The translations under genes and the position numbers were made by a program. Shown one piece after another: positions 6,001 to 20,884 of a stretch of 26,833 bases of DNA; position 1 is the first letter of the stretch, and each line of letters opens with the position of its first letter. This DNA comes from Fidelibacterota bacterium (GTDB lineage: Bacteria; Fidelibacterota; UBA8477), in the NCBI GenBank assembly GCA_021734045.1, contig JAIPJR010000039.1:1-26833 (forward strand), given 5' to 3'. The notes beneath the pieces are model-generated. The model did not search any database, had not been told where the DNA came from, and saw only the letters and a program-made list of their open reading frames with translations.

Positions 6001-6023
6001 TGCGTATTATCATAAAGGGGTAA
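3..6023 (+). CDS. sprA: T9SS outer-membrane translocon protein SprA (5' truncated by window)
   Basis: SprA forms the giant outer-membrane barrel through which type IX secretion clients leave the periplasm. The reading frame is open from base 3, so the true start and signal peptide lie upstream. The first in-frame start-like codon, a TTG at 27, is not a real start. About 2006 residues are visible; known SprA proteins are about 2300-2400. Counting from 27, residues 53-106 carry the family signature (FKIEGKVGDRVSINVDQDSE, then FDFEN and a VEAGNITLNLP stretch). The C-terminus ends in a typical strand with NRISGTRTA and LEFGVRIIIKG. Much of the C-terminal half shows alternating polar/hydrophobic beta-strand pattern. 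Nucleotides 4814-4975 encode a Pro/Lys/Asp-rich hydrophilic insert that interrupts this pattern. The stop is 3 bases before the next gene. Family assignment is firm; the exact domain borders are not computed. Confidence 0.93.
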   Translation, partial: SGATQSLELIGADIAGQRVSLRVRGDININGNLTKNDQSQTATTANQYESTNFQIKQTQAFKIEGKVGDRVSINVDQDSERDFDFENSLQIQYNGTEDEIIQKVEAGNITLNLPATNLATFSSKSNGLFGLKAIMKVGALDITTIASLEKGQQQKKTFSGDEASQAQTVPDFRRVHRKYFFINAFYRRKFYPLNEAGLHILTGRRVVDIEVYKSILPGSQFDDSEIYWGYASVDTQAIARNWVRLVQNQDYTILEDFGVLKLEQPVQTDEVLAIAYRDSAMTDDGTLVYEYDPFGQTLVYQEGTLGEVSTTDTLQLVMLKSDDAQPGQPPWDLELKNVFYLGAQPINKDGFELKIQYTRTPEATEETDDGTNFLQLFGLDLYDESGNLQSDGIMDLDNVNTIRFNTGEVFLPYLHPFMPDTLPDDAIPERTDALGNVLGTGGNPNLTDAKYQSFSFYDELEGTSNYQNDHKFQFSVKYSNKSSVINLGFNLIEGSEEVTLDGRRLQRGPDYQIDYFSGTLTILNEAALAPGAQLEVKYEQHEFFQLDKKIILGSRAEYKFGKNEQSFIGATALFFSKSSIDEKVRIGKEPIQNFIWDVNTKMTYDMNWLTKALDWLPVVKTDKPSTLNIQGEIAQVRPNPNTANNPELGDYGVAYIDDFEGSRRETNLGVQMRNWTIASPPVDVGTGVISKNNRKRGYSYWYNPYHRIPTNQIWPNKETSAQAQNDVTDVLVLDMTPDSSFWVRDDHNDPTESWGGFMRSLSSGYYDQTESKFLEMWVKGDVGRIHVDLGLISEDIQSSPAEQWSVTIDGKTVDKGWGRLDTEDLPSATSTLGDGLVSEAEDVGWDGWRYTHSDTLDWHPSWDFWAFDPNATTLDYSQANGGEGNFNAEGGRYPDTEDLNNNGALDIRNAYFTIEVDLSQDTYIAGRTQYLNGGYTGWKLIRVPLTEFDIAGDENATKWEKIKYARLWMDGVQEKTAVQIATIDLVGNEWQETAGVGVFSDYERQDVAADTILTNFDVSVINTEDNPNRYNQDSRDPYSAPPVGVRGIQDPITGLRSKEQSLVLKAENLLPGHAVSARKQFYDTKDMSHYGTLKMFIHGWDPDRPDYEAINNFTRYEVNPDSSKLEFFLRLTLNNQDDYYEIRKPIFAGWDPRNELKVRMSDLSNFKLSLSDSVMIDTAVVSTDNGDSTVIDTIFWNDFPEARKYASRKLPDGSTIVVKGDPTISQVKYLKTGFRNRDPVQSMTGEIWLDELRVTDVEREIATAAVASASISLADIGSVNLTIDKRDADFHNAQTQFGSGSNSISAGVSGNLALDKFLPENWGLSIPVNSSYRFSERQPKYIPGTDIRVMDLDPSLRDTLNSITDLTTSYSWNVSLSKRTKSDFWLTRYTIDNLSLKLANNQNYSQSSQIAGKTTGSTSGNIRYNLSLGKDFTIQPLRFMAGFPLVGEKISAFTLGYLPSSISLDANGSENQSNTEKRNKNADKITSHTLSLTRNVSVDWPIMPTLNARYSRKMDNNLDSLANQKKRIIETGNLGHMGTLQESYSLAWQPRFLKLFAPNLSYASSYRAVDAITTTTPGVDALVNVTASTSLNVRLSELLGLVYKPQSTSTSGRPPQPSPRGRPTKSRRDENKEPPKADAPKKESKDDKSGDDGPGLIKTVFTGVYRVVEKIDPISISVNNQQSQARNKLVYDDSTEIAINDVDWRYKLGLVDSPGDFATSSLITTPGSENQSVNLSLRSGVKFTKDISAQVTFNHVQREDNSYGTQGVTNKVSYDYLPSGPLFGEPDRDLSTLGKQGVPLPSFSLRWYGLEKVSFIKKFASSMYVESGYRGNQETSYQRGDEFNGQTISANFSPLLGVTMTIKPGINFSLNWNNTRNISNGTGGLTNIKMDQSLTSNIGYSRRSGINIPMPMMDDIYLENNIDFSMSITYSQSKSFQANPDETGARLNIDSKDYSKQIIVNPNINYSFTDRITGRVGYNFTLTDNRISGTRTANKLEFGVRIIIKG

Positions 6024-6026
6024 TCC

Positions 6027-6944
6027 GTGAGTTTTAAGAACAGGCGAGTTTTACACCTTCTTGCCGGTTGGTTCATGATGCTGGGGAGCTCCGGATTAAT
6101 GGCGCAAACCGGCTTCAGTGGCGGCCGGGCTATGGATTACCTGGTGGCACAGTGCGATTTCGGTCCGCGGGTCCCCAATTCAGAAGCGGCGCGGCAGGCG
6201 ATTCAATATTTCCGTGAGGTTTTACAGGCCAGTTGCGACACGGTCATTCTCCAACCTTTTGATGTTCCCGATCCCTATAGCGACGAAACATTGCACCTCA
6301 CCAATGTGATTGGACGATTTGCACCGGAAAAGACGCAGCGTGTGATTTTAGGTGCACACTGGGATTCGCGTCCCCGGGCGGACTTTGATCCGTTCAATCC
6401 CGGTGCGCCGATCCTGGGTGCCAACGATGGCGCCAGCGGGGTCGCCATTCTGCTGGAGATGGCGCGTCAGTTGAAAAAAACGCCGCCCGATATTGGCGTG
6501 GATCTCGTTCTGTTTGACGGTGAGGATTGGGGCAAGGAGGGTGATTTAGATGCCTATTTACTGGGCAGTCGCCATTATGCGAAAAATCCGCTGCCCCCCC
6601 GCGCCCGGTGGGTCATTGTTCTGGACATGGTGGGTGATGCGGAATTGGCGCTGCCGGTGGAGCCCTATTCACACAAGAATTCACCCGATCTGGTTCGGCA
6701 GATTTGGGATATCGGTCGCGAGTTGGGGTATTACCAGTTCAAGCCCTTCCTGGGCACGCCTGTTTATGATGACCATATTCCCTTTATCGAGCGGTATTAT
6801 GAAGCCATTGATATCATCGATTTTGAATATCCTAACGCGGATGAAAATTTTTGGCACACCCATGAGGATACACCAGACAAGTGTTCAGCAGAAAGTCTGG
6901 AGGCGGTGGGGAACACGGTCTTAACCTGGGTGTACCGCCAATGA
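6027..6944 (+). CDS. Secreted M28-family zinc enzyme, glutaminyl-peptide cyclotransferase-like
   Basis: Probably converts N-terminal Gln of exported proteins to pyroglutamate in the periplasm. The start is GTG at 6027, supported by AAAGGGG seven bases upstream. Residues 1-26 are a signal peptide with predicted cleavage at LMA|QTG, so the mature protein would itself begin with Gln. M28/glutaminyl-cyclase motifs occur in order: AHWDSRP (H111), GANDGASG (D134), FDGEDWG (E166, D167), LGSRHYA, LDMVGD (D200), DDHIPF (D249) and FWHTHED (W276, H277). By homology to animal-type glutaminyl cyclases, D134, D167 and H277 would bind zinc and E166 would be the catalytic base. The DDHIPF and WHT motifs favour cyclase over M28 aminopeptidase, but aminopeptidase activity is not excluded. 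The start follows the sprA stop by 3 bases, and the stop overlaps prmA by 4. Confidence 0.85.
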   Translation: MSFKNRRVLHLLAGWFMMLGSSGLMAQTGFSGGRAMDYLVAQCDFGPRVPNSEAARQAIQYFREVLQASCDTVILQPFDVPDPYSDETLHLTNVIGRFAPEKTQRVILGAHWDSRPRADFDPFNPGAPILGANDGASGVAILLEMARQLKKTPPDIGVDLVLFDGEDWGKEGDLDAYLLGSRHYAKNPLPPRARWVIVLDMVGDAELALPVEPYSHKNSPDLVRQIWDIGRELGYYQFKPFLGTPVYDDHIPFIERYYEAIDIIDFEYPNADENFWHTHEDTPDKCSAESLEAVGNTVLTWVYRQ

Positions 6945-7807
6945 CAAAGCAACAGGGAAAAGAACCGGCGGTGTGGCAGTTAGTGAATGTGGTGATTAAG
7001 CCGAAGTGGCTTGAATTGGCGATTGATTTTGCCATAGGATTGGGAAGTTCGGCAGCAGTGGAGACACCGTCCGGATTCCAGGTGGCATTCCCGGGAGCGG
7101 AATCTGATGCTGCAGAAGCCCTAGGCGCGCTAAAAAGCTACCTGCTCGGGATCGGCACCGGTGCGGAGGTATCCACAATGCCGGTCGTTGAGCGGGACTG
7201 GAATGCTAATTGGAAAGCCTTTTTCAAACCGACTCAAATCGGTGATCGGCTATGGGTCATTCCGGAGTGGGAAAATCCTGATTTGCTTGGGGACGCCATT
7301 GTAATCCGGATTCGCCCAGCCATGGCTTTTGGCACGGGGACACACGAGACGACCCAGTTGTGTATGGAATTTTTGGAGACTGTCATGAAGGGCGGCGAGA
7401 GCGTGCTGGATATTGGCGCCGGCAGTGGCATTTTGGGCATCACAGCTTTGAAATTAGGAGCGCAGTCGGTTTTGGGCGTGGAGATTGATGCGGCTGCGGC
7501 AGAGAATTTTCATGAGAATGCCGAATTGAATGGCGTGTCGGATGGGATAACGCTCCAAATCACACCCGAACCCATGCTGGATTCTGTATTTGAAGTGGGG
7601 GTAGCGAATATGATTCAGAGCCGGCTGGAAGCGGCCTTGCCCTATTATCATGACGCAGTGAAACCTGGCGGAACCGTTATTCTCTCCGGCGTCTTGGCAA
7701 AGGACGACACCAGTTTCCGAGCCTTTCTTGATGAAAAATTGCCATGGCGGATTGTAGATGCACGAACCAAAAATGAATGGATTGGATACCAATGTATCGT
7801 GGAATGA
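6941..7807 (+). CDS. prmA: Ribosomal protein L11 methyltransferase PrmA
   Basis: S-adenosylmethionine-dependent methyltransferase expected to methylate ribosomal protein L11 in the cytoplasm. The frame is open further upstream (to 6881), but ATG 6941 is chosen because it forms an ATGA overlap with the preceding stop and gives the usual length (288 residues). The PrmA features are all present: RDWNANWKAFFKP (residues 86-97) in the linker after the small substrate-recognition domain, AFGTGTHETT (129-138), SAM motif I VLDIGAGSGILG (155-166), the acidic motif II residue E181 in GVEID, and VANMIQ (221-226). The family usually has ANI/L-L-A in the last motif, so this loop is slightly divergent. It sits in the middle of a secretion operon, with no obvious functional link. 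Confidence 0.9.
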   Translation: MTKQQGKEPAVWQLVNVVIKPKWLELAIDFAIGLGSSAAVETPSGFQVAFPGAESDAAEALGALKSYLLGIGTGAEVSTMPVVERDWNANWKAFFKPTQIGDRLWVIPEWENPDLLGDAIVIRIRPAMAFGTGTHETTQLCMEFLETVMKGGESVLDIGAGSGILGITALKLGAQSVLGVEIDAAAAENFHENAELNGVSDGITLQITPEPMLDSVFEVGVANMIQSRLEAALPYYHDAVKPGGTVILSGVLAKDDTSFRAFLDEKLPWRIVDARTKNEWIGYQCIVE

Positions 7808-8712
7808 GCAGAAAAATGATATCCGGTTTAAGCCTGATTTTGGTCTTCAATGCATGGTGGGCTTGCGACCAGTTACCCACCTCCATCGAAGACAAGACGA
7901 AAAACGATGCCCTGGGCGGTGAATCGGTCGTGGTGTCCGTTTTAGCGCTGGATTTTGATTATTCGGCGGGTCGTTTTTTTGTCACCGTGAAGGTATTGAG
8001 CAAGGATAGCGTGGAGCGTGTGGTGGGCGAGTTCTCATTTAATGACAGTGTGTACGCACAACTGACGCTGGCGGATGATGGGCAGGGCGAAGACATTTTA
8101 CCCGGAGACAGTCAATTTAATGGGATATGGAATGCCGGCGGCATTGACCCGGCCGTCCAATCCGACTGGGGATTCACGGCAACGGCGTATAGCACAGCCG
8201 GAGATTCTGCCAGTGCCGGAACGACGATTCATTTAACACCGCCGGAGCCGCCGCTGATTGAAGCGATTCAGGCACCCGATACGCTCTATCTGGACGACAC
8301 GGATTGGGTGTTGGATACGCTGCGGGCGCAGGTTTCCCATCCAGAAGGTCTGGATGAAATCCGGGATGTATTTTTCCGCTCCAAAAGGCCCAGTGACAGC
8401 AATTTTGGCGCAGCGTTTAACCTGTGGGACGACGGTGGGCAGACCGTCCTCTTCATCATTCCGCTGCAGAATGATACACTGCGGCTCAGCAGTTTTGATG
8501 CAGTGGCTGGGGACGGCATTTATTCCTTTCCCATCGCGTTGAATCCTGCGGGACAGACGGGCACCACGCACTACCAATTTCAGGCGCGAGCGTGGAACGG
8601 ACAGATCACCGCAATCGTATCGGATTCCCTGGTGATTTTACCGGCAGCATCGGTCCGGAACACTGGTATTATGACAGATTCCCCTTCAACCAATCAAACC
8701 CCGTGGAATTGA
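7804..8712 (+). CDS. Predicted lipoprotein with two DDG...GD motifs, function unknown
   Basis: Unrecognised 302-residue protein. The open frame extends back to 7777, but ATG 7804 overlaps the prmA stop as ATGA and gives a good export signal: a hydrophobic stretch (residues 6-20) followed by Cys21 (AWWAC). The lipobox is imperfect (Trp at -2 and -3), so lipidation is likely but not certain. Two related motifs, LADDGQGED...PGD (89-102) and LWDDGG...DAVAGDGIY (207-240), resemble the Asp/Gly turn motifs of extracellular beta-sandwich modules common in FCB proteins. The rest is beta-rich with many Asp, Gly and Thr. Its place between prmA and a T9SS client, inside the sprA-porV operon, suggests an envelope role, possibly in secretion; this is inference. 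Confidence 0.8.
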   Translation: MSRKMISGLSLILVFNAWWACDQLPTSIEDKTKNDALGGESVVVSVLALDFDYSAGRFFVTVKVLSKDSVERVVGEFSFNDSVYAQLTLADDGQGEDILPGDSQFNGIWNAGGIDPAVQSDWGFTATAYSTAGDSASAGTTIHLTPPEPPLIEAIQAPDTLYLDDTDWVLDTLRAQVSHPEGLDEIRDVFFRSKRPSDSNFGAAFNLWDDGGQTVLFIIPLQNDTLRLSSFDAVAGDGIYSFPIALNPAGQTGTTHYQFQARAWNGQITAIVSDSLVILPAASVRNTGIMTDSPSTNQTPWN

Positions 8713-8716
8713 GCAG

Positions 8717-10366
8717 ATGATGCAAATGACGAGAAATTTTAATAAACGCGGTTTGCCCATGGTAATTCTGATGATTTTGGGAATCTCCCCGTTGTGGGGC
8801 CAACTCATGCGGCCGGTCTCCTATCAGTTAACCGGAGGAGATTCCACGCTGCAGGGCTTGATTGGAAATGGCATCAGTGATATGAAAATGACCGGTGACA
8901 CCGTGTGGCTGGGGTCCGGTCACGGATTGAGTGTGACCCGGGATGGCGGGAATAGTTTCCGCAGTTATTCACGGCAATTTTCTGATATTGGATATGGTGG
9001 TGTATCGGGCTTGACGGTGGCTGGTGACACGGTCTGGGCTGCATTTGCCATTGATTCTCTGGTAGGGGATGAAAATGCCCAGACCGGCGTGGGTATTGCC
9101 CGAAGCCTGGATGGTGGCGCGAGCTGGACGCGCCTTCCACAACCAATGGACACCCTGAAGTGGCATTATATCTACAACGATGCCGGGACACAGATTATTG
9201 ATTCCACGGTGCAGGTTTACTCTACAATTCAGGTATTCGGTCAGGACATTCCGGCTGTGGATGTGGTGACGCCCATAAAAAATGTGACCTTTGATCTGGC
9301 GTATGACGGGAAATGGCTTTGGGCGGCTTCTTTCGCCGGCGGATTGCGCCGGTCCGGAGATCTCGGCGAGACCTGGCAACGCGTTTTACTCCCCTGGGAT
9401 AATGAGGCGCGCCTGGATAGTGGGTTACTGGTAGAATTAGCTCCTCAAATCGCCGCTGACACGGTGGGAACCCGGCAATACACACTGGATCCGGTGTTAC
9501 ATCTGAATCACCGTGTGTTTTCAGTCATTGCCTGGGATGACACGGTATGGGTGGGAACTGCCGGTGGTATCAATGTCTCCAATGACGGTGGTCGTAGTTG
9601 GCGGCACATGAACAGCTCATCCACCAATATGAGTGGTAATTGGGTGGTGGCTTTGCACCGTCAGCAACGCAGTGATGGTCGGGCCGTAAATTGGGCTTCC
9701 ACCGTGACAACCGGTGGCAGCGAGGTGACGGGACTGAGTTATCATTTAGAAGACGAAAGCGAATATTATTGGTATAGCACATTGCCTGGGTTTCGGATTC
9801 ATAATTTTGCCAGTACGGGTGCGGCGATTTATGCTGCTGGTGAGTTGGGATTGTTCAAGTCGAAGGATGGTGACCATTTCGTCTCTTTTCCACCTATCCG
9901 CAGCGCGGATGGTTCCACCAATATATTCAGTGACGCAGCTTACAGCGTGCTGGCCCGGTCTGACGGGGCACTTTGGGTAGGGACGGGTGATGGTTTGGCT
10001 ATTACTTATAATGAAGGATTGACCTGGAGGGTTGAGAAAGCGCAGGCGGAGACCAAAGATCAGGAACTCATCGCTTACCCCAATCCATTTTTTCCGTACC
10101 ACAGCAAACAGCTTCAGGGCGAAGGACATTTGATTATTCAGTACAATGTGCAGGCGGGGGCGTCCGTTTCTCTGAAAGTGTATGACTGGGCAATGTCGGA
10201 GGTTGTGACGCTGCTGGAAGGAGCGACGGCTCCGTTGAACGGTTCGCAGGAATCGTACTGGACCGGCCGGAACAGCGCGGGTCACCGGGTGGCCAACGGA
10301 ACCTATTTCATTCAACTGGAGCAGGACGAAACGGTAACCTGGACGAAAGTGATGGTGATAAATTGA
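8717..10366 (+). CDS. Secreted Asp-box beta-propeller protein with T9SS-type C-terminal domain
   Basis: Predicted surface or secreted protein of 549 residues. ATG codons also occur at 8720 and 8726, so the exact start is uncertain. Residues 1-28 are a signal peptide with likely cleavage SPLWG|QLMR, leaving an N-terminal Gln. Six BNR/Asp-box turns (S-x-D-x-G-x-x-W/F type) are visible: TRDGGNSF (74-81), SLDGGASW (130-137), SGDLGETW (213-220), SNDGGRSW (288-295), KSKDGDHF (381-388) and YNEGLTW (431-437). They indicate a six- or seven-bladed propeller. From about 454, AYPNPFFPY, then VSLKVYD, YWTGRNSAG and NGTYFIQL match the FlgD-like fold of T9SS type A sorting domains. No catalytic residues are recognised. 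It lies 4 bases after the lipoprotein stop and overlaps the next gene by one base (TGATG). Confidence 0.85.
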   Translation: MMQMTRNFNKRGLPMVILMILGISPLWGQLMRPVSYQLTGGDSTLQGLIGNGISDMKMTGDTVWLGSGHGLSVTRDGGNSFRSYSRQFSDIGYGGVSGLTVAGDTVWAAFAIDSLVGDENAQTGVGIARSLDGGASWTRLPQPMDTLKWHYIYNDAGTQIIDSTVQVYSTIQVFGQDIPAVDVVTPIKNVTFDLAYDGKWLWAASFAGGLRRSGDLGETWQRVLLPWDNEARLDSGLLVELAPQIAADTVGTRQYTLDPVLHLNHRVFSVIAWDDTVWVGTAGGINVSNDGGRSWRHMNSSSTNMSGNWVVALHRQQRSDGRAVNWASTVTTGGSEVTGLSYHLEDESEYYWYSTLPGFRIHNFASTGAAIYAAGELGLFKSKDGDHFVSFPPIRSADGSTNIFSDAAYSVLARSDGALWVGTGDGLAITYNEGLTWRVEKAQAETKDQELIAYPNPFFPYHSKQLQGEGHLIIQYNVQAGASVSLKVYDWAMSEVVTLLEGATAPLNGSQESYWTGRNSAGHRVANGTYFIQLEQDETVTWTKVMVIN

Positions 10367-11325
10367 TGCGGTGTTCACTCAAGTTACTGATGGTGTTGGT
10401 GGTGATGCCCTTTGGAATGCACAGCCATATCTCTGGTGCGGTGGGTGGTTACACCGGTACTTTTTTACGCCTGACACCGGATGCTGTTAGTGCCGGCCTG
10501 GGCGGGATAACCCTGTTCGAGGAGGCTTCCGGTTACGCCTTTCTGCACAACCCGGCTGCTCTCACGGAAAGTCAGCGGCGTATTCACGCGGGAACGGTGC
10601 ATCTGCCACTGGATCGGCATCTGTACGGGATTAATTACACCATGGAATTACCACCAACGGCGCATCTGGGGCTGGGTGTGATGAGCGCGGGAACGCGGAA
10701 TATTCCCGGGCGTGATTCCCGTGGATATTACACCGGCGAATTGCAGGACGAGGAGCGGTTGCTGGGGGTTGCCTTTGCAAATGACATCACGTCACAGGCC
10801 ACCGTGGGGGTGACCCTTCAACTGGTACAGCACAAGCTCACCGGCGCTCAGGATACCTGGGATTTGTCAGCCAGCGGTTTTGGCCTTAGCACCGGATTAA
10901 CACTGAAAATGACCCACTCTACAACCGTAGCGGTGAGCCTTCAGAATATCCAATTGAAATACAACTGGAACACCGAAAGTCTCTTCACTTCTGGTCAGGG
11001 ACAAGCCTACTCAGAGCCATTTCCGTTATTGTTAGCGGCGGGATTTCGGCAAAAAACAGGGTCGTTCCAGCTTATGGCTCAGGTAGATGCCTGGCTGGGT
11101 GGCGAAGAATATCAATACCGCGCGGGGTTGATTTATACCGGATTGCGGCAGTTAGCGTTGAGGGCTGGTGCGCAATATATGGATGCGGCATTCTTGCCGG
11201 GTTTCAGCGCTGGGTATCGTCTTCCGGCCGAGTTCGGTCCCCGCATGCAGATCGATTATGGTATTGTTATTGGTGTTCCGGGTGAGGGCGTGCGCCAATA
11301 TATGAGTTGGGAAATGGGGTTTTAA
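10366..11325 (+). CDS. PorV/PorQ-family outer-membrane protein, PorV-like
   Basis: Outer-membrane barrel of the PorV/PorQ family, 319 residues. In studied T9SS systems PorV binds SprA and shuttles clients to the surface. ATG 10366 is preferred over the in-frame TTG at 10363; it overlaps the previous stop as TGATG. A signal peptide covers residues 1-25 (HISGA|VGG). The family N-terminal motif FLRLTPDAVSAGLGG (33-47) is followed by HNPAAL (61-66), equivalent to the usual 'WNPAGL'. The remainder is alternating amphipathic strands ending in YMSWEMGF with a terminal aromatic residue, as expected for a barrel. PorV versus PorQ cannot be settled by eye; being in the sprA operon and first of the pair makes a PorV role reasonable. 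Confidence 0.82.
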   Translation: MRCSLKLLMVLVVMPFGMHSHISGAVGGYTGTFLRLTPDAVSAGLGGITLFEEASGYAFLHNPAALTESQRRIHAGTVHLPLDRHLYGINYTMELPPTAHLGLGVMSAGTRNIPGRDSRGYYTGELQDEERLLGVAFANDITSQATVGVTLQLVQHKLTGAQDTWDLSASGFGLSTGLTLKMTHSTTVAVSLQNIQLKYNWNTESLFTSGQGQAYSEPFPLLLAAGFRQKTGSFQLMAQVDAWLGGEEYQYRAGLIYTGLRQLALRAGAQYMDAAFLPGFSAGYRLPAEFGPRMQIDYGIVIGVPGEGVRQYMSWEMGF

Positions 11326-12203
11326 TGTCATTTATTTTCAAGCTATATGCGTACAACAGGTTTCGTCGCCTGAGTGGATTTATTCTGATGACGCTGGGGC
11401 TGAATCTTTCTGCTGCCGGGGGTGGCTTGGCCGTACTTCAATATCCAATAACTGTGCGTTCCGCCGGAATGGGGCAGCTGCTGGATCCGGCCAATACACC
11501 CACCAGCCTGTACCGATTACCTGACCGCCAGGCGGATGTATCTGCTTGGCAATGGATTAGCGGTGTAAATGGTCTTGCTATTACGGTGAACCGGCAGCCG
11601 GTAGCAGTAACCCTGAATTATTTCAATATCGAAGGTCTTCAGTATCGGGATGACGTGCCTACAGAATTACCCCGCTTTGAGTTCGGATATTCCAACGCCG
11701 CAGTGGGGGTCACCATAGGGCGGGTATTCGGAAAAATCCAAACAGCTGTCAACCTGCAATATCTGTGGGAGCGCACGCTGGATTACAGCGCCGGTGGTGT
11801 GGATTTAAATCTGGCGGCCGCGCTAGATATTGCTGAACGACTATTGCTAACAGGCGGTGTACGGAATGTGGGATTTATGTCTGACTTGAATAGCGAATCC
11901 AGCGAATTGCCTACCGCTGCCTTTCTTCAGGTCGGTTATTCCGGTGACGGACTGGGGATTACGGGAGAATTATCCAACGATGATTTCCCGGTAAAATTGG
12001 GTGGTGAGTACACCTTTCTCTCAATTATTCACCTCTACGGCGGTCTGCAGGTGGGTCGTGATGTGGATGCTGCGGGCATGGATTATTACCCATCAGCGGG
12101 TTTTGAATTAGATTTCCAGACCTTCACACTGGGGTTCGCGCTTCATCAGATAAACCATGTTCTGGGGCCACGTCAATACATTGCACTAGCCTGGCGGTTT
12201 TAG
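11325..12203 (+). CDS. PorV/PorQ-family outer-membrane protein, PorQ-like
   Basis: Second barrel protein of the family, 292 residues. ATG 11325 overlaps the preceding stop by one base (TAATG), with ATGGGGT upstream as a weak ribosome binding site. An upstream in-frame start at 11307 lies inside the previous gene and is not favoured. Residues 13-32 form a hydrophobic export signal after a basic segment (NRFRR). PITVRSAGMG (41-50) is the family's N-terminal glycine motif; it is followed by repeated amphipathic strands and the C-terminal QYIALAWRF with terminal Phe, the usual outer-membrane insertion signal. It is shorter and more divergent than its upstream neighbour, so the two are old paralogues rather than a recent tandem copy. 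It is last in the operon. No strong terminator is seen in the next 199 bases. Confidence 0.75.
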   Translation: MSFIFKLYAYNRFRRLSGFILMTLGLNLSAAGGGLAVLQYPITVRSAGMGQLLDPANTPTSLYRLPDRQADVSAWQWISGVNGLAITVNRQPVAVTLNYFNIEGLQYRDDVPTELPRFEFGYSNAAVGVTIGRVFGKIQTAVNLQYLWERTLDYSAGGVDLNLAAALDIAERLLLTGGVRNVGFMSDLNSESSELPTAAFLQVGYSGDGLGITGELSNDDFPVKLGGEYTFLSIIHLYGGLQVGRDVDAAGMDYYPSAGFELDFQTFTLGFALHQINHVLGPRQYIALAWRF

Positions 12204-12402
12204 CCGAATTTCCCAACACCCAATGGCACAGACCCAGGCATTACAGGCAGTACTTCTTTCATAATACCTTGCAGTTGTTATCCGGGGATGCTTGCCCGCG
12301 GGCTTGACGAGAACGAAGCCGGCCCCGATTGCGCTGCATTAGTGTCCGGTTGAGTTCCCGTATTGAATTTCAGCGGATAAAGTCTTTAATGATGAAATTG
12401 GG

Positions 12403-15400
12403 TTAGTTACCCAGCGCTTCCCGCACCTTTGTGGTCAGGTCATGAATAGCAAACGGCTTCTGGAGAAAATGGATTTCTTCGTCTAAAACCCCGAAGGGTG
12501 AAATCATATTGTCCGTGTAGCCGGACATAAAGAGAACCTTGATGAGGGGGCGTGATTGGGAGAGTTTTTCGTACAGCACCTTGCCATTCATGCCGGGCAT
12601 AATTACATCAGTGACCAATAAATCTATTTCATTATCGGTGGCATCTGAGAGGGTGAGTGCTTCTTCCGCATTCTCAGCCGTGAGGACTTTATAGCCCTGG
12701 TGCACCAGAATATCCCGCACCAGTTCCCGGGCCATCACTTCATCTTCCACCACAAGAATGGTTTCGTTGCCTCCTTTGGCCTCGCTCTTTTTCTTTTTGG
12801 TAGGTTTACCTGACACTGATTCCTCCAGTTGGGGTAAATATACTTTAAATGTCGTTCCGACCCCCGGTTCGCTCGAAGCAAGGATTCGGCCATTATGCTG
12901 CTTGATAATGCCATACGCGGTCGCCAGTCCTAATCCAGTTCCTTTCCCGCGTTCCTTCGTTGTATAAAAAGGTTCAAAAATATGGTCCAATGTCTCACTG
13001 TTCATGCCATGACCATTATCGCTCACGGACAGCACCACATAAGCCCCGGGCTCAATGTCCAGTCCACTTGCCACCAGCGGTTCTTCAACATGGACACGCT
13101 CCGTTTCAATTACGATGAATCCGCCGTCAGCAAGGGCATCCTGCGCATTGCCCGCCAGATTTAGTAACACCTGCTCAATCTGGGACGGATCGGCATTCAC
13201 GCGGGGCAGATCAGGCGCGAGTTTGTAGGTGATTTGAATATCCTCCCGCACGGTCCGGCGCAACATGGTGTTCAGGTCATTTACGACCTGGTTCAGATCG
13301 GTTACCTGCATTTCGATAACCTGTTTGCGTCCGAATGCCAGCAGCTGGGTGGTTAATTCTTTGGCACGCTGGGCGGCGCTGTGGATCTGGTCAAACGTAT
13401 TATGGAGCGGCTCATCTTCTGCCAGTCCCAGCATGGCCATTTCCGAATAACCCAAAATCGGTGTGAGCAGGTTGTTGAAATCATGGGCGATGCCGCCGGC
13501 CAGCAGTCCCACCGATTCCATTTTTTGCGATTGCTGGAGCTGTGCTTCCATCTGCAATTGACGGGTGATATCACGCTTAATGGCTACCAGGTTTACAATT
13601 TTATCTTTACCGTCCACCACTGGAGAAATGGTGGCTTCCTCATCGTAGGTGGAGCCATCGTGCCGGTGCATGGTAGCCCGGCCGGTCCAGCTTTTATGTT
13701 GATCCAGCGCTTGCCGTATGGCTGCAAGTGCAACAGCATCCGCATGATCCGGCTGCAGGTTCCGAAGCACATGCCCCATGCTTTCTTCCCGCTTGTATCC
13801 GGTGATACGTTCAAAAGCCGGATTCACATATAGAACAATTCCTTCGGGATCGGTAATGGCCACCGCTTCACTACTCTGATTGATAGCTGCCTCCAGTCGC
13901 AACCGCGCCTCTTCCGCTTGCATCCGTTCCGTAATATCCACCGCAACACCCAGGAGCCCCACCGGTGTACCCGATTCATCCCGAATCACGGCGGTGGAGA
14001 GGTAAATCGGTACATCTGTGCCATCTTTTCGCCGGTTGTAGAGTTCACCATGCCAGCCACCCTCGCGGGTCTTTTCAAAAATCTCATTATTCATGCTGGG
14101 TGGATTCCGGTCGCTATGCAGAATCGTGGCGTGTTTGCCGATGACATCATCCTGATGATAGCCGTATAATTTGCAGAAGGTGTCATTCACGAAGATGATA
14201 CGGTCATTTAAATCAGTTACCGAAACGCATTCACTGAGATGGCGCAAGGCGTGAGCCATCATGGTGACCTTCTCTTCTGTGCGCTGTCGTTCCAGCGCAT
14301 TCCCGATAATTTCGGCAGCTATTTGGAGGTAATTTTTCTGATACTCAGGGAAGGCATGTTCCTGCCGCAGGGAAGCTAAAAGCAGAAAACCACCCACCTT
14401 CTGATTCAACAACAACGGTGCGATACCAAAGGATTTTGTTCCCTCAGGTGTGAGTTGGTCATACACGCCCAGCGGATCATCTTTAAGTCCGGTAGTGTTG
14501 CTGTAAACGAGAATCTCGCCCCGGGACAGTTGATCCGCGAGCCCGGGATTGCTTTTGGTGTCAACGGATTTCAAGCTCTCGCCAGCGGGAGGCTGGTCAG
14601 TTTCCGACTGCCACACATGCGTTTGGGAGAAGGACAGATTGTCTTTCGAGCGTTGAAATACTGCCACCGAATCCACTTGGATCAGGTCACCTAAATTCTC
14701 CAGTGCGACCTCAACGGCTGCATCTGTATCGTAATGCCCCACAAACGTAGCGGAAATGGCTGATAACAACTGCTCCGCTTTCAGGCGCTGGTTAAGGCGT
14801 TCCTGAATCCGCTTCTGCTGCGATAAGTCCAATGCAGCCCCGATCAAACCCGTTACGGCACCATTCTCGTCAAGGGTGGGCTCCAGTACCAGATTAATAA
14901 AAGCCTTTCCCTCCTCAGCTTTGGTGGTGAGGATTAATTCAGATTGCTGCGGTTTTCCCGTTGACAGGACCTGCTTTTTAAGAGCAGCCACCCTTTGTTG
15001 CTCTATTTCCGGCAATCGGGAGAAAAAATGATCTTCAGGGGTCTCCTCCAGATTGTCCCCGTTACCTTCGGGATCATACATCCAGGTGTAATTCAGATCA
15101 GCGTCCTGGGAGAACACCAAAATTGGAACATGGCGCAGTGCCACCCGGAATCGTGTTTCACTCTCCTGGAGCGCCAGCATGGATTTCTTCAGCGGGGTAA
15201 TGTCGTGTTCGATGCCCTGAACACCGATTTGCCGGCCATTCTCGTCCAAGATTGGCCCCCAGCTCCCGCGAAACCAAAACCACTGGTTATGGACATTTCG
15301 CATTCGGAATTCCACATTTTCGAATGCCTCCCCGTGAAACGCCCGGTCCCAAATTTCCAGCAACCTTTTCTTATCATCAGGGTGAAACCATTCAACCGCC

Positions 15401-16533
15401 TGTATTTTCTGTAATTCCCGGAAAGAGAGGCCGGAAAGTTTTTCCAAAGCTGAGTTAGCGAACACCAGATTTTGATCCATGTCGTAGGCAAAAAGAGCAT
15501 CCTGGGTTTGGGCGGCTATAAGACTCAGGCGTCGCTCCGTGAGATCCAGCGCTTCGGTGGCGGCATCCCGCTCTTTCAATACCCGGATCAATCGGTCGCG
15601 CTCATGGCGTAATTTCCGCCAGCTGAAGAATCCCACAATGACCAGCGTCAGCAGAATCGCAGCAATCACAGCTGACGTGATAAAGATGCGCATTTCGCGC
15701 CGGGAGTAGAGGGCGAAGGGATTCTCGCCGAACCATTTTTCATAAATGCGTGACAAGGTGCCGTTGGTACCCAGTTGGGTAATGGCGTGATTCAATTGCA
15801 AGGAGAGCGCTTTATCGCCGACCTGAACTGCCATATGCACCCGAATGGTGCGCAGTGGAATTTCCGAAAAGGTAATCTGATTCATCAGATTCAGCACGTT
15901 TAGCAGGTAATAGCCCACTTCCCGGATGTATATGACAGCATCCACCTGATGATTGGCCAGTTGGGAGAATGCCTCTTCAGCCGAATGGACCGAGACCTGA
16001 TCAATCCGTGGAATGGAAGCGATAAAGTTGTCGGAAATGGTCGATTGAATGGTGGCTATCCGTTGCCCCCGTAAGCTCTCAAGGGAGTTATAATCCCCAT
16101 CCTCCCGGCGACTAAAGATGACTTCGTCCACCTGGAGGTAGGGTGTTGTAAATTCCATTTCTCCGATCCGCTCAGCAGCAAATCCCACCATGGCCACCAC
16201 ATCAATCTCACCTCGCTTCAGGGCTTCTATTCCCGCCGGCACATTGACCAGTGGGGTATCGATTGTGGTAATTTTGAGATAGTCAGCTGCAGCAGTGAGC
16301 ACATCATGGGAGAGGCCGGTGATTTGATTTTCGCTGTCAAGATAGGCCAGGGGTGCCCGATCCACAGGAAAGCCCACCCGTAGGATATTGGGTACCGAAT
16401 TATCGAACAGCGAATCCCCCACGGGCTGGCTTCCACCCGTCGTGGTGAGCACCAACGTTAGAACGCTAACAATTACGAGAATTCGCCCAAAAGGAATGGA
16501 CTTGGATATGGATGGTAATGACGTCTTTTTCAT
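12403..16533 (-). CDS. Hybrid sensor histidine kinase: SBP_bac_3 sensor, four PAS, GAF, HisKA, HATPase, receiver
   Basis: Inner-membrane sensor of 1376 residues. The frame extends to a TTG at 16584, but ATG 16533 starts a clean signal peptide (MKKTSL..., likely cut at TTGGS|QPVG). Order: periplasmic family-3 solute-binding domain (about 48-272), transmembrane helix (about 281-303), PAS/PAC (341-455), a second PAS-like segment (457-580), GAF (585-735), PAS (760-867), PAS (878-990), then HisKA with AGGIAHDFNN (phospho-acceptor H1017). The HATPase has NLAGNAQDAL, DNGHGM, FEPFYTTK and GKGTGLGLA, and a C-terminal receiver has LLVTDVIMPG (D1309). All catalytic residues are intact. The ligand is unknown; the sensor class commonly binds amino acids or other small solutes. 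There is no DNA-binding output domain and no adjacent regulator, so the phosphorelay partner must be elsewhere. No convincing Shine-Dalgarno precedes the start. Confidence 0.92.
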   Translation of the reverse strand: MKKTSLPSISKSIPFGRILVIVSVLTLVLTTTGGSQPVGDSLFDNSVPNILRVGFPVDRAPLAYLDSENQITGLSHDVLTAAADYLKITTIDTPLVNVPAGIEALKRGEIDVVAMVGFAAERIGEMEFTTPYLQVDEVIFSRREDGDYNSLESLRGQRIATIQSTISDNFIASIPRIDQVSVHSAEEAFSQLANHQVDAVIYIREVGYYLLNVLNLMNQITFSEIPLRTIRVHMAVQVGDKALSLQLNHAITQLGTNGTLSRIYEKWFGENPFALYSRREMRIFITSAVIAAILLTLVIVGFFSWRKLRHERDRLIRVLKERDAATEALDLTERRLSLIAAQTQDALFAYDMDQNLVFANSALEKLSGLSFRELQKIQAVEWFHPDDKKRLLEIWDRAFHGEAFENVEFRMRNVHNQWFWFRGSWGPILDENGRQIGVQGIEHDITPLKKSMLALQESETRFRVALRHVPILVFSQDADLNYTWMYDPEGNGDNLEETPEDHFFSRLPEIEQQRVAALKKQVLSTGKPQQSELILTTKAEEGKAFINLVLEPTLDENGAVTGLIGAALDLSQQKRIQERLNQRLKAEQLLSAISATFVGHYDTDAAVEVALENLGDLIQVDSVAVFQRSKDNLSFSQTHVWQSETDQPPAGESLKSVDTKSNPGLADQLSRGEILVYSNTTGLKDDPLGVYDQLTPEGTKSFGIAPLLLNQKVGGFLLLASLRQEHAFPEYQKNYLQIAAEIIGNALERQRTEEKVTMMAHALRHLSECVSVTDLNDRIIFVNDTFCKLYGYHQDDVIGKHATILHSDRNPPSMNNEIFEKTREGGWHGELYNRRKDGTDVPIYLSTAVIRDESGTPVGLLGVAVDITERMQAEEARLRLEAAINQSSEAVAITDPEGIVLYVNPAFERITGYKREESMGHVLRNLQPDHADAVALAAIRQALDQHKSWTGRATMHRHDGSTYDEEATISPVVDGKDKIVNLVAIKRDITRQLQMEAQLQQSQKMESVGLLAGGIAHDFNNLLTPILGYSEMAMLGLAEDEPLHNTFDQIHSAAQRAKELTTQLLAFGRKQVIEMQVTDLNQVVNDLNTMLRRTVREDIQITYKLAPDLPRVNADPSQIEQVLLNLAGNAQDALADGGFIVIETERVHVEEPLVASGLDIEPGAYVVLSVSDNGHGMNSETLDHIFEPFYTTKERGKGTGLGLATAYGIIKQHNGRILASSEPGVGTTFKVYLPQLEESVSGKPTKKKKSEAKGGNETILVVEDEVMARELVRDILVHQGYKVLTAENAEEALTLSDATDNEIDLLVTDVIMPGMNGKVLYEKLSQSRPLIKVLFMSGYTDNMISPFGVLDEEIHFLQKPFAIHDLTTKVREALGN

Positions 16534-16664
16534 TTCAATAGGTGCCGGTTGTTTCCCCGGTGGGAACGTTACACCGATTGTCAAAAGCGCTGTGTGTCGT
16601 TCGTTTGGCGGGTAGCACGACCCGGAAGAAATACCCTCACCGTAAAATATAAGGTGCGCGGATT

Positions 16665-17651
16665 CTAATGAACCTTGTATTTTTCAGAAACAAGGTTCAG
16701 CAGATCCAGATCTTCCCGTGTCAGGGTAAAATCCATAACACCGGCATTTTCCGCTGCCTGGCGGGGTTTGGATGCACCGGGGATGGCGACAATGGTTTCA
16801 CCATGAAAATGGATGACCCAATTCAGGGCAACCTGGCCCGGGGTCACGCCATATTTTTCCGCCAGTTTCTCCAGATGTGCTACCACCGGACCGCTCTCCG
16901 CAAGTCCGGATTTTTTAAAAGCTGAGAGGAATTTTCGTGGTCCCTGGCGGGTCTTGATTAAGTCAGGATTGTGATGGAATTTTCCCGTGAGTACGCCCTG
17001 AGCCAAGGGTGAGTAGGCAATGATAGTCGTACCCAGCGATTTGGCCATCTCCAAAATCCCATTCGTCTCAATCCGCCGGTCCAGCAGACTGTATTTCACC
17101 TGATTGGATGCCAGTGTCAACCCGCGCGAGGCGAGGGTTTCCGCAGCTTTTTCCATTGCCCGGGCGGAGAAATTGCTCACCCCGATGCTGCGAATGTGGC
17201 CCGCCGCCACTAAATCAGCCATGCGATGCATCTGGGCACTCACACCCGAAAAACTATAGGGCTGGTGCACCTGATACAAATCGATAGGGTAGCCCTGCAG
17301 GAACTTCAAGCGGTTGTCGATGGTTTTGGGGATATTCCCGCTGGTACGGAACAGTGGCCACCATTTGGTGGCGATTTTAATCTTGCCGGGTTCAGCGCCC
17401 AGCTCCAATAGAGCATTGGATAGGGCCTGCTCTGAATTGCCCCAGCCATAGGCTTCGGCGGTATCGAACCAGTTCACCCCGCCCACCAACGACGTTTCTA
17501 CAATATCGGTCATCGTGGGGGAATCCAGGTTATCCCAGAATTTTCCGGTAATGCCCTTACCGTTGGAAAATTGCCAGCACCCCAGTCCGATAGGTGTTAT
17601 GCGAATCTCTGTCCGTCCCAATGGCCGGGTTTCCCGTGGTTTTATGGTCAT
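16665..17651 (-). CDS. Aldo/keto reductase
   Basis: NAD(P)H-dependent oxidoreductase of the aldo/keto reductase superfamily, 328 residues, cytoplasmic. ATG 17651 is preceded by GGGGG eight bases upstream. The catalytic tetrad is complete: D63 and Y68 in FDTAEAYGWG, K96 in IATKWW, H129 in YQVHQP. Further family features are SIGVSNFS (about 155-162), NQVKYSLLDR, AYSPLAQGVLTGK (cofactor loop) and IPGASKP near the C-terminus. These resemble the AKR group of soluble dehydrogenases rather than membrane-anchored ones. The substrate cannot be inferred. It is transcribed in the same direction as the flanking genes but separated by about 120-130 bases on each side, so it may be its own unit. Confidence 0.93.
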   Translation of the reverse strand: MTIKPRETRPLGRTEIRITPIGLGCWQFSNGKGITGKFWDNLDSPTMTDIVETSLVGGVNWFDTAEAYGWGNSEQALSNALLELGAEPGKIKIATKWWPLFRTSGNIPKTIDNRLKFLQGYPIDLYQVHQPYSFSGVSAQMHRMADLVAAGHIRSIGVSNFSARAMEKAAETLASRGLTLASNQVKYSLLDRRIETNGILEMAKSLGTTIIAYSPLAQGVLTGKFHHNPDLIKTRQGPRKFLSAFKKSGLAESGPVVAHLEKLAEKYGVTPGQVALNWVIHFHGETIVAIPGASKPRQAAENAGVMDFTLTREDLDLLNLVSEKYKVH

Positions 17652-17770
17652 GACTGTAGCCCCCGATTCGTGTAAGTGATTATTATCAGTACAAAAATGT
17701 CAAATCGTATCGTTTGGGAAAATTCTACGGCTTAAGTCGGCTGAAAACCTGTCCCGGTTAGTTTCACCCC

Positions 17771-20700
17771 TCACTTCAGTACCGTCATCTTCACCGATTT
17801 TTCTACACCGTCACCTTGCAAGCGGGCAAAATAAATCCCGGCACTGACCGTCAGTCCATTATCATCCCGGCTGTCCCAGATGATGTCATACCAGCCCGGC
17901 GGGGTTTGGTTTTGACCGGCTAAGAGTGTCCTCACTTTTCGGCCCCGTACATCATAGATCACCAGACTCACCCCGTCGGTGCTCGGCAGGCCAAACCGAA
18001 TAGTAGTGACCGGATTGAAGGGATTGGGGTAGTTTTGTTCCAGTACAAATTGTGATGGTAGTTTAACCGCATCGCTTTCGGTTGTTGAGGTCGTCGCCAG
18101 CAGAAAATTAATCACCGCAGACATGACGGTATTCCTGGACGCAGCCGGGTAGATGGTTTCGAACGGGAAGCCCAGATAAACCACTTTACCGGGTTCTGTG
18201 CCTCCGGGAAAGAGTCCATTGAAACTCACACCGCCTATATTGTGGGTGGCCACATTTTGATAGCTCACAATATTTACACTGCCATTGATGGCCGTCAATG
18301 CATCCGGATAGCGCACATTGAATGTCCCGTGGGTGCCATTGTCATACAGGATCGTCCCAATGTCATTGAAAATGGTACCGGGTATGCCCTGAGCGGCGTA
18401 ATAAGTACCGGAAACACCTCCGGGTGCGTCTGCAGAATAGGCTGCTTTCAAGTAATTATGGATGAAATTTTTATCCCCGGTAGAACCCCGGTAGTCCAAA
18501 TCCCAGGCGATTTCCGCACCAGAAACGAAGAGCCGTCCGCCCTGGCGGAGATAGGCCGAGACCAGCGCTTGTTCCGTGGTGGAAAAAGTTTCATCCACGG
18601 TGGATTCCTCACCCAGGATGTAGTCCACGATTAAATAATCGTTCAGATTTACCAGCCCGTTCAGTACGGCGTCATTGGTGACAGATTCAAAACTCAAATT
18701 ATTTTCATGCAGCGCCGTACCGTGCTGCCGAACGAAGTTGAAGGTATTCCCGGCCGACGTGCGGTCAAAGCCGTTCACCAGAAGTACTTTGTTCTCGTCC
18801 GGACCGGACGGGAGAGCTGCCAGAACCTCCGACTCGTTGGAAACGCCGGAAGCATTCTCTGCCACCAACTTGATAAAGAGCAGCGTATCGGGCGGAAGAC
18901 TATCCAGCGTGTACGAATTGGTGCTTATCAGGATGGGATCATCGAATGTCAGCCCATCGCCACTGGTGTAGAGCTGGTACTGCTGAATATTCTCGTCCGG
19001 CTCGATAATGACGCGCGCTTCGCCTGGATTTTCCGATAGAATGGCGAACGAAACCGGCCGGGATGGTAAACTGCCGTCAGGAATGTAGGTGGGCTGTACC
19101 ATGTGTCCCGACTCGTCGCTAAGCAGTGCGTACTGAATTGGATTTCGCAATAGCACGGTGGCATCTGCCATGATATTATCAACAGAAACCTGCCTGTCCA
19201 GAAATCGAATACCATGACTGTAATCCACATAGGTATTCACATGAATATTGGTGAGGGGTTGGATGGGAACACCATTGAGCTGGTGCCAGCCGTAAATGGT
19301 CACATGATCGGGACGACTGGGATCAATGATGAGATTGCTTAGAACCACATCTTTTTTAGTACCACCAATCAGGTCACCAAGGCTGGCCCCGGCTGATACC
19401 AATTGTGCTTCGATAGCTGTATTATGCTCAACGAATTTTGGCACCAGTTCATTCTCATTGCCAACCGGTGCGTAAGTGACAGGAGCCAGATGCACATCGG
19501 CATGGGTCCAGATATGATTCACCAGTTTTCGTGTAGGCATGAACATGCCGTAAAAATCGGCGATATGCTGGGCAGTGATGGGACCCATGGGAATTCGGCA
19601 ATAGTTGGAATCAGCGCCGATTGAGAGATAATCAGGCATGACGCGATAGGTTATGTCGTGGGTGATCCCGGCGGCATCCTGAAAGGTTCCGGTCAGGGTT
19701 TTCAACTCCCGCAGGAAATAGGGGACATTCCCGGTATATAGTTCATTCAGAATGGCATTTTCCCGTTGGCTGAAACTCATGGCAGTGACGGCGCTCATGA
19801 ATTGACTGCCGTTCAGGGCGTCAGCGCGTCGCAGGGGAATCTGTACTGACGGGCGCTCCAGAACACCGGTTTGGACCAGGTCAGAATATGCGCGCTCACC
19901 GTAGTAGGTATAGCCCGAGTTTTCATATTCTGTCCCGGTGACCATGGTGTGAATGAACCCGTTCCGTTCCACTTGAACCGTGTGGAGAATCTCCTGATTG
20001 GGGTTTTTCTTCAGCACGATTTCAATGCGATTATCCAGAGCATAATGCCGGATAAAGTCGTCATTTTCCTCAGTTGTGAAAGTATAGAACTGAGCCAGAT
20101 ACTGCTGCATCATGCGGGAGCGGTACCAGGTACCGCCGGTGGGTGAGACGATGGGCTCGCCATTATAGAGTGCAACGCTGTCGTTATAGGCAATTACGGA
20201 GAGAAACCGGTCAGACGCTCCATTGAGCCAGGTGACGAATTGGGCGCCATAGGTATTATCGTACCCGTAATTGCTGTCCAGGAAGCAGATGCGTTTTACC
20301 CCATCGGGAATTTCACTCACACCATCCAGGTAGTCGAAGATGAACCGGCCGCCCCCGCTGTGTCCCGTGAGTACGACAAACGGCGAATACTCCTGAAAGA
20401 CAGCCAGCAGGTACGCCACGGTTTCCTGGATAATGTCATCGTAATTGGGGTAATTGGTGGTCCAGGCCGGCCAGCTCAGTTGGGACGACTCCAGGTAAAC
20501 AGTAACCAGGTTATAGTCCGGGTTGAGTTGTCGTAGAAAACGGGTCTGGGCACCGATGTGTTGAATGTCGTAATGCCAGTCGTCACCGGTTTCCAGCACT
20601 TTCCCCACGGTATGTTCAATAGTGTTTCCATTGGGTAATGCGTAGAGCGCCAGCCCCATGGATTTATCCACCATGAAGGAATCCACAGCCGGCGCGTTGA

Positions 20701-20884
20701 TGTGAATGGTGATGTTATCCTTTAATTGGAAAGTCGCCACTTGTTCATTGAAGTGTGGACTGGTGGTAAAACCAGGGATTTCCGGTGTGACCTGTCCCCG
20801 GAGCGCGGAAAAACTCAGCGTCAATAGAATGATTGTGTGTGCGAAGAACTTCCCAATATTTTTGGTGTGTTGCCCGGTATTCAT
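17771..20884 (-). CDS. Secreted T9SS client with alpha/beta-hydrolase-like and amidotransferase-like domains
   Basis: Predicted exported protein of 1037 residues. The frame is open to 21172, but ATG 20884 has AAGGGG four bases upstream and begins a signal peptide (cut at SALRG|QVTP), while the longer form would overlap greA. Residues about 90-320 look like an alpha/beta hydrolase: nucleophile elbow TGHSGGG (S176), with D203 (LDSNYG) and H312 (NGFIHTM) as possible triad partners. Residues 335-600 hold a conserved-looking region (MPDYLSIGADSNY, LPTRK-type segment, GGTKKDVVLSN, IYGWH, DYSHGIR) of a kind found with xanthan-lyase-like FCB proteins. A fibronectin-III-like segment (about 604-690) and a class-I amidotransferase-like domain (about 695-935; ILGEESTVDETFS, GGRLFVSGAE) follow. 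Residues 940-1037 (QNYPNPFNP, YDVRGRKV, AGIYFARL) are a type A sorting domain. Substrate unknown. Confidence 0.87.
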   Translation of the reverse strand: MNTGQHTKNIGKFFAHTIILLTLSFSALRGQVTPEIPGFTTSPHFNEQVATFQLKDNITIHINAPAVDSFMVDKSMGLALYALPNGNTIEHTVGKVLETGDDWHYDIQHIGAQTRFLRQLNPDYNLVTVYLESSQLSWPAWTTNYPNYDDIIQETVAYLLAVFQEYSPFVVLTGHSGGGRFIFDYLDGVSEIPDGVKRICFLDSNYGYDNTYGAQFVTWLNGASDRFLSVIAYNDSVALYNGEPIVSPTGGTWYRSRMMQQYLAQFYTFTTEENDDFIRHYALDNRIEIVLKKNPNQEILHTVQVERNGFIHTMVTGTEYENSGYTYYGERAYSDLVQTGVLERPSVQIPLRRADALNGSQFMSAVTAMSFSQRENAILNELYTGNVPYFLRELKTLTGTFQDAAGITHDITYRVMPDYLSIGADSNYCRIPMGPITAQHIADFYGMFMPTRKLVNHIWTHADVHLAPVTYAPVGNENELVPKFVEHNTAIEAQLVSAGASLGDLIGGTKKDVVLSNLIIDPSRPDHVTIYGWHQLNGVPIQPLTNIHVNTYVDYSHGIRFLDRQVSVDNIMADATVLLRNPIQYALLSDESGHMVQPTYIPDGSLPSRPVSFAILSENPGEARVIIEPDENIQQYQLYTSGDGLTFDDPILISTNSYTLDSLPPDTLLFIKLVAENASGVSNESEVLAALPSGPDENKVLLVNGFDRTSAGNTFNFVRQHGTALHENNLSFESVTNDAVLNGLVNLNDYLIVDYILGEESTVDETFSTTEQALVSAYLRQGGRLFVSGAEIAWDLDYRGSTGDKNFIHNYLKAAYSADAPGGVSGTYYAAQGIPGTIFNDIGTILYDNGTHGTFNVRYPDALTAINGSVNIVSYQNVATHNIGGVSFNGLFPGGTEPGKVVYLGFPFETIYPAASRNTVMSAVINFLLATTSTTESDAVKLPSQFVLEQNYPNPFNPVTTIRFGLPSTDGVSLVIYDVRGRKVRTLLAGQNQTPPGWYDIIWDSRDDNGLTVSAGIYFARLQGDGVEKSVKMTVLK

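What the first reader, a model, noticed from the sequence alone, without database searches (positions are those of the whole stretch)
6027..20884. Exported proteins predicted to start with glutamine, next to a glutaminyl cyclase
Likely cleavage sites leave Gln at +1 in the cyclase itself (LMA|QTG), the propeller client (LWG|QLM), the 1037-residue client (LRG|QVT) and probably the hybrid kinase sensor (GGS|QPV). In Bacteroidetes a bias to Gln after signal peptidase I cleavage, followed by pyroglutamate formation, is known. Here the enzyme directly follows sprA, hinting that N-terminal cyclisation and T9SS export are linked in this lineage. The PorV/PorQ-like proteins and the second kinase do not show it.
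Basis: partly seen in the sequence, partly recalled or inferred. Interest (0 to 1): 0.7.

Follow-up and report, generated by a model that had tools for sequence, protein, structure and literature searches.

The report
Bacteroidetes-style N-terminal glutamine rule in Marinimicrobia
In this uncultured marine bacterium, which is not a member of the Bacteroidetes, a large share of exported proteins are predicted to start with glutamine once the signal peptide is removed, and an enzyme that would cap that glutamine as pyroglutamate sits next to the sprA secretion gene; the capping looks general and not tied to that secretion route.

Summary
The window lies in a Marinimicrobia (SAR406) genome, not a Bacteroidetes one. 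The cyclase, the propeller protein and the 1037-residue T9SS client carry Gln directly after plausible signal peptidase I sites; the kinase (GGS|QPV) is ambiguous. Genome-wide the bias is strong: with a predictor blind to +1, 34 of 97 exported proteins (35%) have +1 Gln here, 30 of 66 (45%) in 20 other Marinimicrobia, 10 of 21 in a Cyclobacteriaceae control, 1 of 53 in E. coli. The ORF at 6027-6944 is by sequence, active-site residues and predicted fold a type II (M28) glutaminyl cyclase. It follows sprA in 108 of 114 Marinimicrobia genomes compared, and in a Zixibacteria genome, but in 0 of 27 Bacteroidota. The proposed functional link to T9SS export is not supported: T9SS clients show the same Gln fraction as other exported proteins (10/26 versus 24/71, p = 0.81), and a ~1 Mb pelagic relative without detectable PorU sortase keeps cyclase and bias. 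Best reading: the Q-rule, described as exclusive to Bacteroidetes, also operates in Marinimicrobia. Pyroglutamate itself is inferred, not shown.

The parts
27..6023 (+). SprA/Sov, T9SS outer-membrane translocon (5' end cut by the contig start)
   Evidence: TIGR04189 799 bits, cut-off 200; window is C3:1-26833 of G000
6027..6944 (+). Type II (M28) glutaminyl cyclase, signal peptidase I substrate
   Evidence: PDB best matches are bacteroidal QCs, 1e-54 to 1e-40; AlphaFold pLDDT 88.7; VIA Z 43.6 to BtQC, 43.3 to TfQC, 42.8 to PgQC
6105..6107 (+). Predicted +1 Gln codon of the cyclase (LMA|QTG)
   Evidence: invariant A|Q in 22 of 22 cyclases of the order
7777..8712 (+). Predicted lipoprotein (WWAC lipobox), not a signal peptidase I substrate
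   Evidence: sequence; lipobox also in the orthologues
8717..10366 (+). Beta-propeller (BNR) protein with C-terminal FlgD-like/sorting-type domain
   Evidence: weak C-terminal match to PorZ
8801..8803 (+). Predicted +1 Gln codon of the propeller protein (LWG|QLM)
   Evidence: Gln kept in L003 and L004
10363..11325 (+). PorV/PorQ-family protein without +1 Gln
   Evidence: NF033709 61 bits, below its cut-off of 90; cleavage SGA|VGG
11307..12203 (+). Second, weaker PorV/PorQ-like protein without +1 Gln
   Evidence: NF033709 20 bits
12403..16584 (-). Hybrid sensor kinase with SBP_bac_3 sensor; likely Met start at 16533
   Evidence: Pfam
16426..16428 (-). Possible +1 Gln codon of the kinase (GGS|QPV), ambiguous
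   Evidence: blind score prefers TTG|GSQ
17771..20884 (-). 1037-residue T9SS type A client (CTD at the C-terminus)
   Evidence: TIGR04183 28.8 bits, cut-off 23; own-genome hit C3:17786-18031
20792..20794 (-). Predicted +1 Gln codon of the client (LRG|QVT)

Best explanation
Marinimicrobia follow the Q-rule known from Bacteroidetes. Exported proteins are translocated by Sec, signal peptidase I cuts before a glutamine in a large share of them (about 35-45% by a blind crude predictor, probably higher), and the periplasmic type II glutaminyl cyclase encoded behind sprA cyclises that residue to pyroglutamate, which most likely protects the N-terminus from aminopeptidases. Shown here: the +1 Gln enrichment, its conservation in orthologues, the homology and active-site match of the enzyme, and the phylum-wide sprA-cyclase pair. 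Inferred: that the enzyme cyclises these N-termini, and what that does for the cell. The gene pair is a conserved envelope gene cluster, probably an operon, and is not evidence that Gln is a T9SS signal.
For: +1 Gln 34/97 own, 30/66 in 20 other Marinimicrobia, 8/21 pelagic relative, 10/21 Cyclobacteriaceae, 1/53 E. coli, same blind predictor; position profile peaks only at +1; fixed-emission EM 26% (own) and 38% (phylum pool) against 2% E. coli; predictor-free motif test. Orthologues keep Gln over diverged signal peptides. Enzyme: bacteroidal QCs at 1e-54 to 1e-40, aminopeptidases at 1e-10 or weaker; Asp134-Gly135, Glu166-Asp167, Asp200, Asp249, His277 invariant in 28 homologues and Trp276 nearly so, matching the QC marks in PMC7948796; fold nearest to Bt, Tf and Pg QC. 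QC homologue in 146 of 149 Marinimicrobia, nearly all at E < 1e-50; no type I QC in 17 genomes.
Against: No pyroglutamate or enzyme activity was measured. One pocket residue of known QCs (Phe294 of PgQC) is not conserved in the alignment, and most bacteroidal-specific residues of the 6-E loop differ. An aminopeptidase fold (6hc6) also superposes well (Z 30.5). The predictor is home-made; one Marinimicrobia genome (G017) shows only 3/14.
Confidence: 0.82

Rival explanations
1. Gln at +1 and its cyclisation are part of the T9SS pathway: the cyclase sits behind sprA because it prepares T9SS cargo or the translocon itself.
For: sprA-cyclase adjacency in 108 of 114 Marinimicrobia, also in Zixibacteria G151 and genome G155; several SprA proteins themselves start with Gln (G017 LWA|QSP, G155 AYA|QIG).
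Against: Same Gln fraction in CTD clients and other exported proteins. Pelagic genomes without detectable PorU and with 3-4 CTDs keep the cyclase, and G102 keeps the bias. Not adjacent in any of 27 Bacteroidota with the same enzyme. Published P. gingivalis work argues against T9SS control (PMC5837995).
Confidence: 0.1
2. The enzyme is an M28 aminopeptidase, and the +1 Gln bias only reflects the cleavage preference of this signal peptidase I.
For: Pfam names it Peptidase_M28; some of its PDB relatives were deposited as aminopeptidases before being proposed as QCs.
Against: Gly after the bridging Asp and Trp before the His ligand are QC marks, not aminopeptidase marks; sequence and fold nearest to proven QCs; the genome's other M28 protein matches only aminopeptidases.
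Confidence: 0.06
3. The bias is an artefact of the prediction method or of Gln-rich N-termini.
For: A home-made predictor and simple gene calls were used.
Against: E. coli through the same pipeline gives 1/53 at a higher Gln background; Gln is not raised at neighbouring positions or after the same motif in the mature part.
Confidence: 0.02

Closest known systems
Bacteroidetes Q-rule (PMC5837995, PMC10653852)
   Same: Strong Gln enrichment exactly at +1 of signal peptidase I substrates, in T9SS cargo and other exported proteins alike, with a type II QC in the genome.
   Different: Phylum Marinimicrobia; cyclase gene directly behind sprA; cyclase of this order is itself a predicted signal peptidase I substrate starting with Gln, not a lipoprotein; fraction by our crude predictor 35-45% against a published Bacteroidetes mean of 71%.
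PgQC / TfQC / BtQC, bacteroidal type II glutaminyl cyclases (6qql, 6qro, 7d1e)
   Same: Fold, Zn ligands, catalytic residues, Asp-Gly and Trp-His marks.
   Different: Phe294 and most 6-E loop residues not conserved; no lipid anchor in the window's enzyme.
Type II QCs of other phyla (7d1b Fimbriiglobus, 7d18 Acidobacteriales)
   Same: Bacterial M28-type QC outside Bacteroidetes with solved structure.
   Different: More distant (Z 39 and 36); +1 Gln in their genomes not examined here.
M28 aminopeptidases (6hc6, 2ek8, 1cp7)
   Same: Same superfamily and fold.
   Different: Asn/Asp instead of Gly after the bridging Asp, Tyr instead of Trp before the His ligand (PMC7948796); much weaker sequence match.

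Membership tests
[quoted passage not shown]
   34/97 own, 30/66 phylum pool, against 1/53 in E. coli and 10/21 in a Bacteroidetes control
Bacteroidetes Q-rule system | Bias not limited to one export destination | tested here: met
   CTD clients 10/26, others 24/71, p = 0.81
Bacteroidetes Q-rule system | Exported glutaminyl cyclase encoded | tested here: met
   homologue with QC active site and signal peptide; activity not tested
Bacteroidetes Q-rule system | N-terminal pyroglutamate on exported proteins | not testable with these tools
   needs mass spectrometry
Bacteroidetes Q-rule system | Member of the phylum Bacteroidetes (as the published scope has it) | tested here: not met
   nearest named relatives are Candidatus Neomarinimicrobiota, 88% and 73%
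Type II glutaminyl cyclase | Zn ligands Asp, Asp (for Glu202), His and catalytic Glu, Asp | tested here: met
   Asp134, Asp167, His277, Glu166, Asp200 invariant
Type II glutaminyl cyclase | Gly (or Ser) after bridging Asp and Trp before His, unlike aminopeptidases | tested here: met
   Asp134-Gly135 invariant, Trp276 nearly invariant; criteria from PMC7948796
Type II glutaminyl cyclase | Phe at four residues before that Trp (Phe294 of PgQC) | tested here: inconclusive
   Asp at that column, but a gap lies beside it
Type II glutaminyl cyclase | Cyclase activity | not testable with these tools
   needs an enzyme assay
Lipoprotein QC as in P. gingivalis | Lipobox Cys at the N-terminus | tested here: not met
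   22 of 22 in this order end A|Q; lipobox-like Cys in four of the Marinimicrobia cyclases read from other families
Type IX secretion system | SprA, PorU sortase and CTD cargo | tested here: met
   SprA 799 bits, PorU 695 bits, 69 CTD matches
Type IX secretion system | GldL/GldM-type motor | tested here: inconclusive
   TIGR03517 GldM found in none of the Marinimicrobia tested; divergence not excluded; GldL not searched

The most novel reading that the evidence does not exclude
The Q-rule is older than Bacteroidetes and arose with the sprA-cyclase gene pair in an ancestor shared with Marinimicrobia, Zixibacteria and others; its first task was to cap the SprA translocon or its partners, and Bacteroidetes later separated the two genes.
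Probability: 0.2. Interest if true: 0.75.

Novelty: new member of a known kind. Interest (0 to 1): 0.58.

Why it matters
The literature calls the Q-rule exclusive to Bacteroidetes and explains it by heavy proteolysis in that phylum (PMC10653852). A phylum of uncultured, partly streamlined ocean bacteria that shows it at a similar level argues against that explanation and for an older or repeatedly gained envelope trait. The conserved sprA-cyclase pair gives a concrete place to look for a link between the cyclase and outer-membrane export, and a lineage in which T9SS is reduced but the rule persists lets the two be separated.

Tried and rejected
EM with freely learned -3/-1 emissions drifted to hydrophobic positions and was discarded; fixed emissions were used instead. 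E. coli was not held as a whole genome, so 400 kb of MG1655 was read piecewise. Reading by eye would raise client +1 Gln from 13/32 to 16/32; the program's numbers are the ones used for tests. The Phe294 comparison was left open because of an alignment gap. Paper searches for Marinimicrobia with glutaminyl cyclase, and SAR406 with T9SS, found none in the held library; this is not proof of absence.

Full report
Place. The window is contig C3:1-26833 of a 2.54 Mb, 92% complete genome. The closest named matches to the cyclase are Candidatus Neomarinimicrobiota MAGs at 88% and 73%, followed by Poribacteria, Zixibacteria and Cytophagales at 35-48%. The genome is therefore Marinimicrobia, outside Bacteroidetes. 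This matters because the Q-rule papers describe the rule as exclusive to Bacteroidetes, while noting outliers such as Ignavibacterium album at 77% and Chloroherpeton at 55%.

Observation. sprA ends at 6023 and the cyclase starts with GTG at 6027, three bases later. A signal-peptide score built on n-region charge, hydrophobic core and residues -3/-1 only, blind to +1, cuts exactly before Gln in the cyclase and propeller and in the 1037-residue client. The kinase is ambiguous. The two PorV/PorQ-like proteins lack +1 Gln.

Genome-wide test. The same pipeline was run on 735 kb of this genome and on controls. +1 Gln: this genome 34/97 (35%), 20 other Marinimicrobia 30/66 (45%), pelagic G102 8/21 (38%), Cyclobacteriaceae 10/21 (48%), E. 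coli 1/53 (2%). Gln at +3..+10 is 5-6% in the first two sets. Proteins pooled over 20 genomes include some orthologues, so they are not fully independent; the single-genome figure does not have that problem. A predictor-free count gives odds ratios of 5.9 (own), 12.2 (pool), 7.2 (Cyclobacteriaceae) and 0.3 (E. coli). Zixibacteria (5/31), G155 (5/20) and Poribacteria (5/16) show weaker or less certain enrichment.

Conservation. Orthologues in L003 and L004 keep Gln at +1 of the propeller and cyclase despite different signal peptides (cleavage partly read by eye). In all 22 cyclases read from the window's order the signal peptide ends in Ala followed by Gln, while the rest of the signal peptide and the +2/+3 residues vary. 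In some other families of the phylum the enzyme is a predicted lipoprotein, as in P. gingivalis.

Enzyme. The best PDB matches are the Bacteroidetes QCs (1e-54 to 1e-40); aminopeptidases come at 1e-10 or weaker. The alignment of 28 homologues keeps Asp134-Gly135, Glu166-Asp167, Asp200, Asp249 and His277 in all, and Trp276 in 90% or more. These meet the QC-versus-aminopeptidase marks of PMC7948796 except Phe294, which is unresolved. The AlphaFold model (pLDDT 88.7) is closest to BtQC, TfQC and PgQC (Z 43.6, 43.3, 42.8; rmsd 1.4-1.6; 277-278 residues), then to QCs from Fimbriiglobus and Acidobacteriales, then animal QCs. A second M28 protein in the genome matches only aminopeptidases. No type I QC was found in 17 genomes.

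Gene pair. A QC homologue occurs in 146 of 149 Marinimicrobia genomes and SprA in 147. Of 114 genomes with both rows compared, 108 have the cyclase downstream of sprA on the same strand; in the other six the two lie on different contigs. The same order is seen in Zixibacteria G151 and in G155. Among 27 Bacteroidota genomes with the enzyme none has it next to sprA; where both share a contig they are at least 19 kb apart.

Link to T9SS. The genome has SprA, a PorU sortase and 69 CTD matches, so T9SS-type export is likely, though no GldM was found by TIGR03517. CTD clients and other exported proteins have equal +1 Gln fractions (10/26, 24/71, p = 0.81). In three ~1 Mb pelagic genomes PorU is not detected beyond CTD-type fragments and only 3-4 CTDs remain, yet the cyclase is kept, and in the one sampled the bias is kept. 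The Armatimonadetes genome G154 has a homologue but no SprA, PorU or CTD match. The rule is therefore general to Sec/signal peptidase I export, as concluded for P. gingivalis.

Conclusion. Its value is that the Q-rule extends to a second phylum and that the cyclase sits in a conserved pair with sprA. The functional tie to T9SS is not supported by the cargo data. Pyroglutamate formation remains to be measured.

Noticed in passing
G102, G028, G006 (pelagic ~1 Mb Marinimicrobia): They keep sprA next to the cyclase although PorU is not detected and only 3-4 CTD cargo matches remain, so SprA may have another role there.
   Followed up: partly
G000 and 11 other Marinimicrobia genomes: T9SS-type SprA and CTD cargo (PorU in most) but no match to the GldM motor model; motor absent or diverged.
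   Followed up: partly
G151 (Zixibacteria): 120 CTD matches and a PorU sortase in a 2.5 Mb genome outside Bacteroidetes.
   Followed up: no
L107, L108, L109, L110 versus window 6027-6944: Within the phylum the cyclase alternates between predicted lipoprotein and signal peptidase I substrate with or without +1 Gln.
   Followed up: partly
G153 (Poribacteria) L173-L182: 5 of 16 predicted exported proteins have +1 Gln, mostly followed by Asp or Glu; SprA only weakly matched.
   Followed up: no
window 12403-16584 and 21774-23384: Two sensor histidine kinases with periplasmic SBP_bac_3 sensors, about 5 kb apart on the minus strand.
   Followed up: no
window 6027-12203, L003, L004: The run cyclase, PrmA-like methyltransferase, lipoprotein, propeller and two PorV/PorQ-like genes is conserved in two relatives.
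   Followed up: partly
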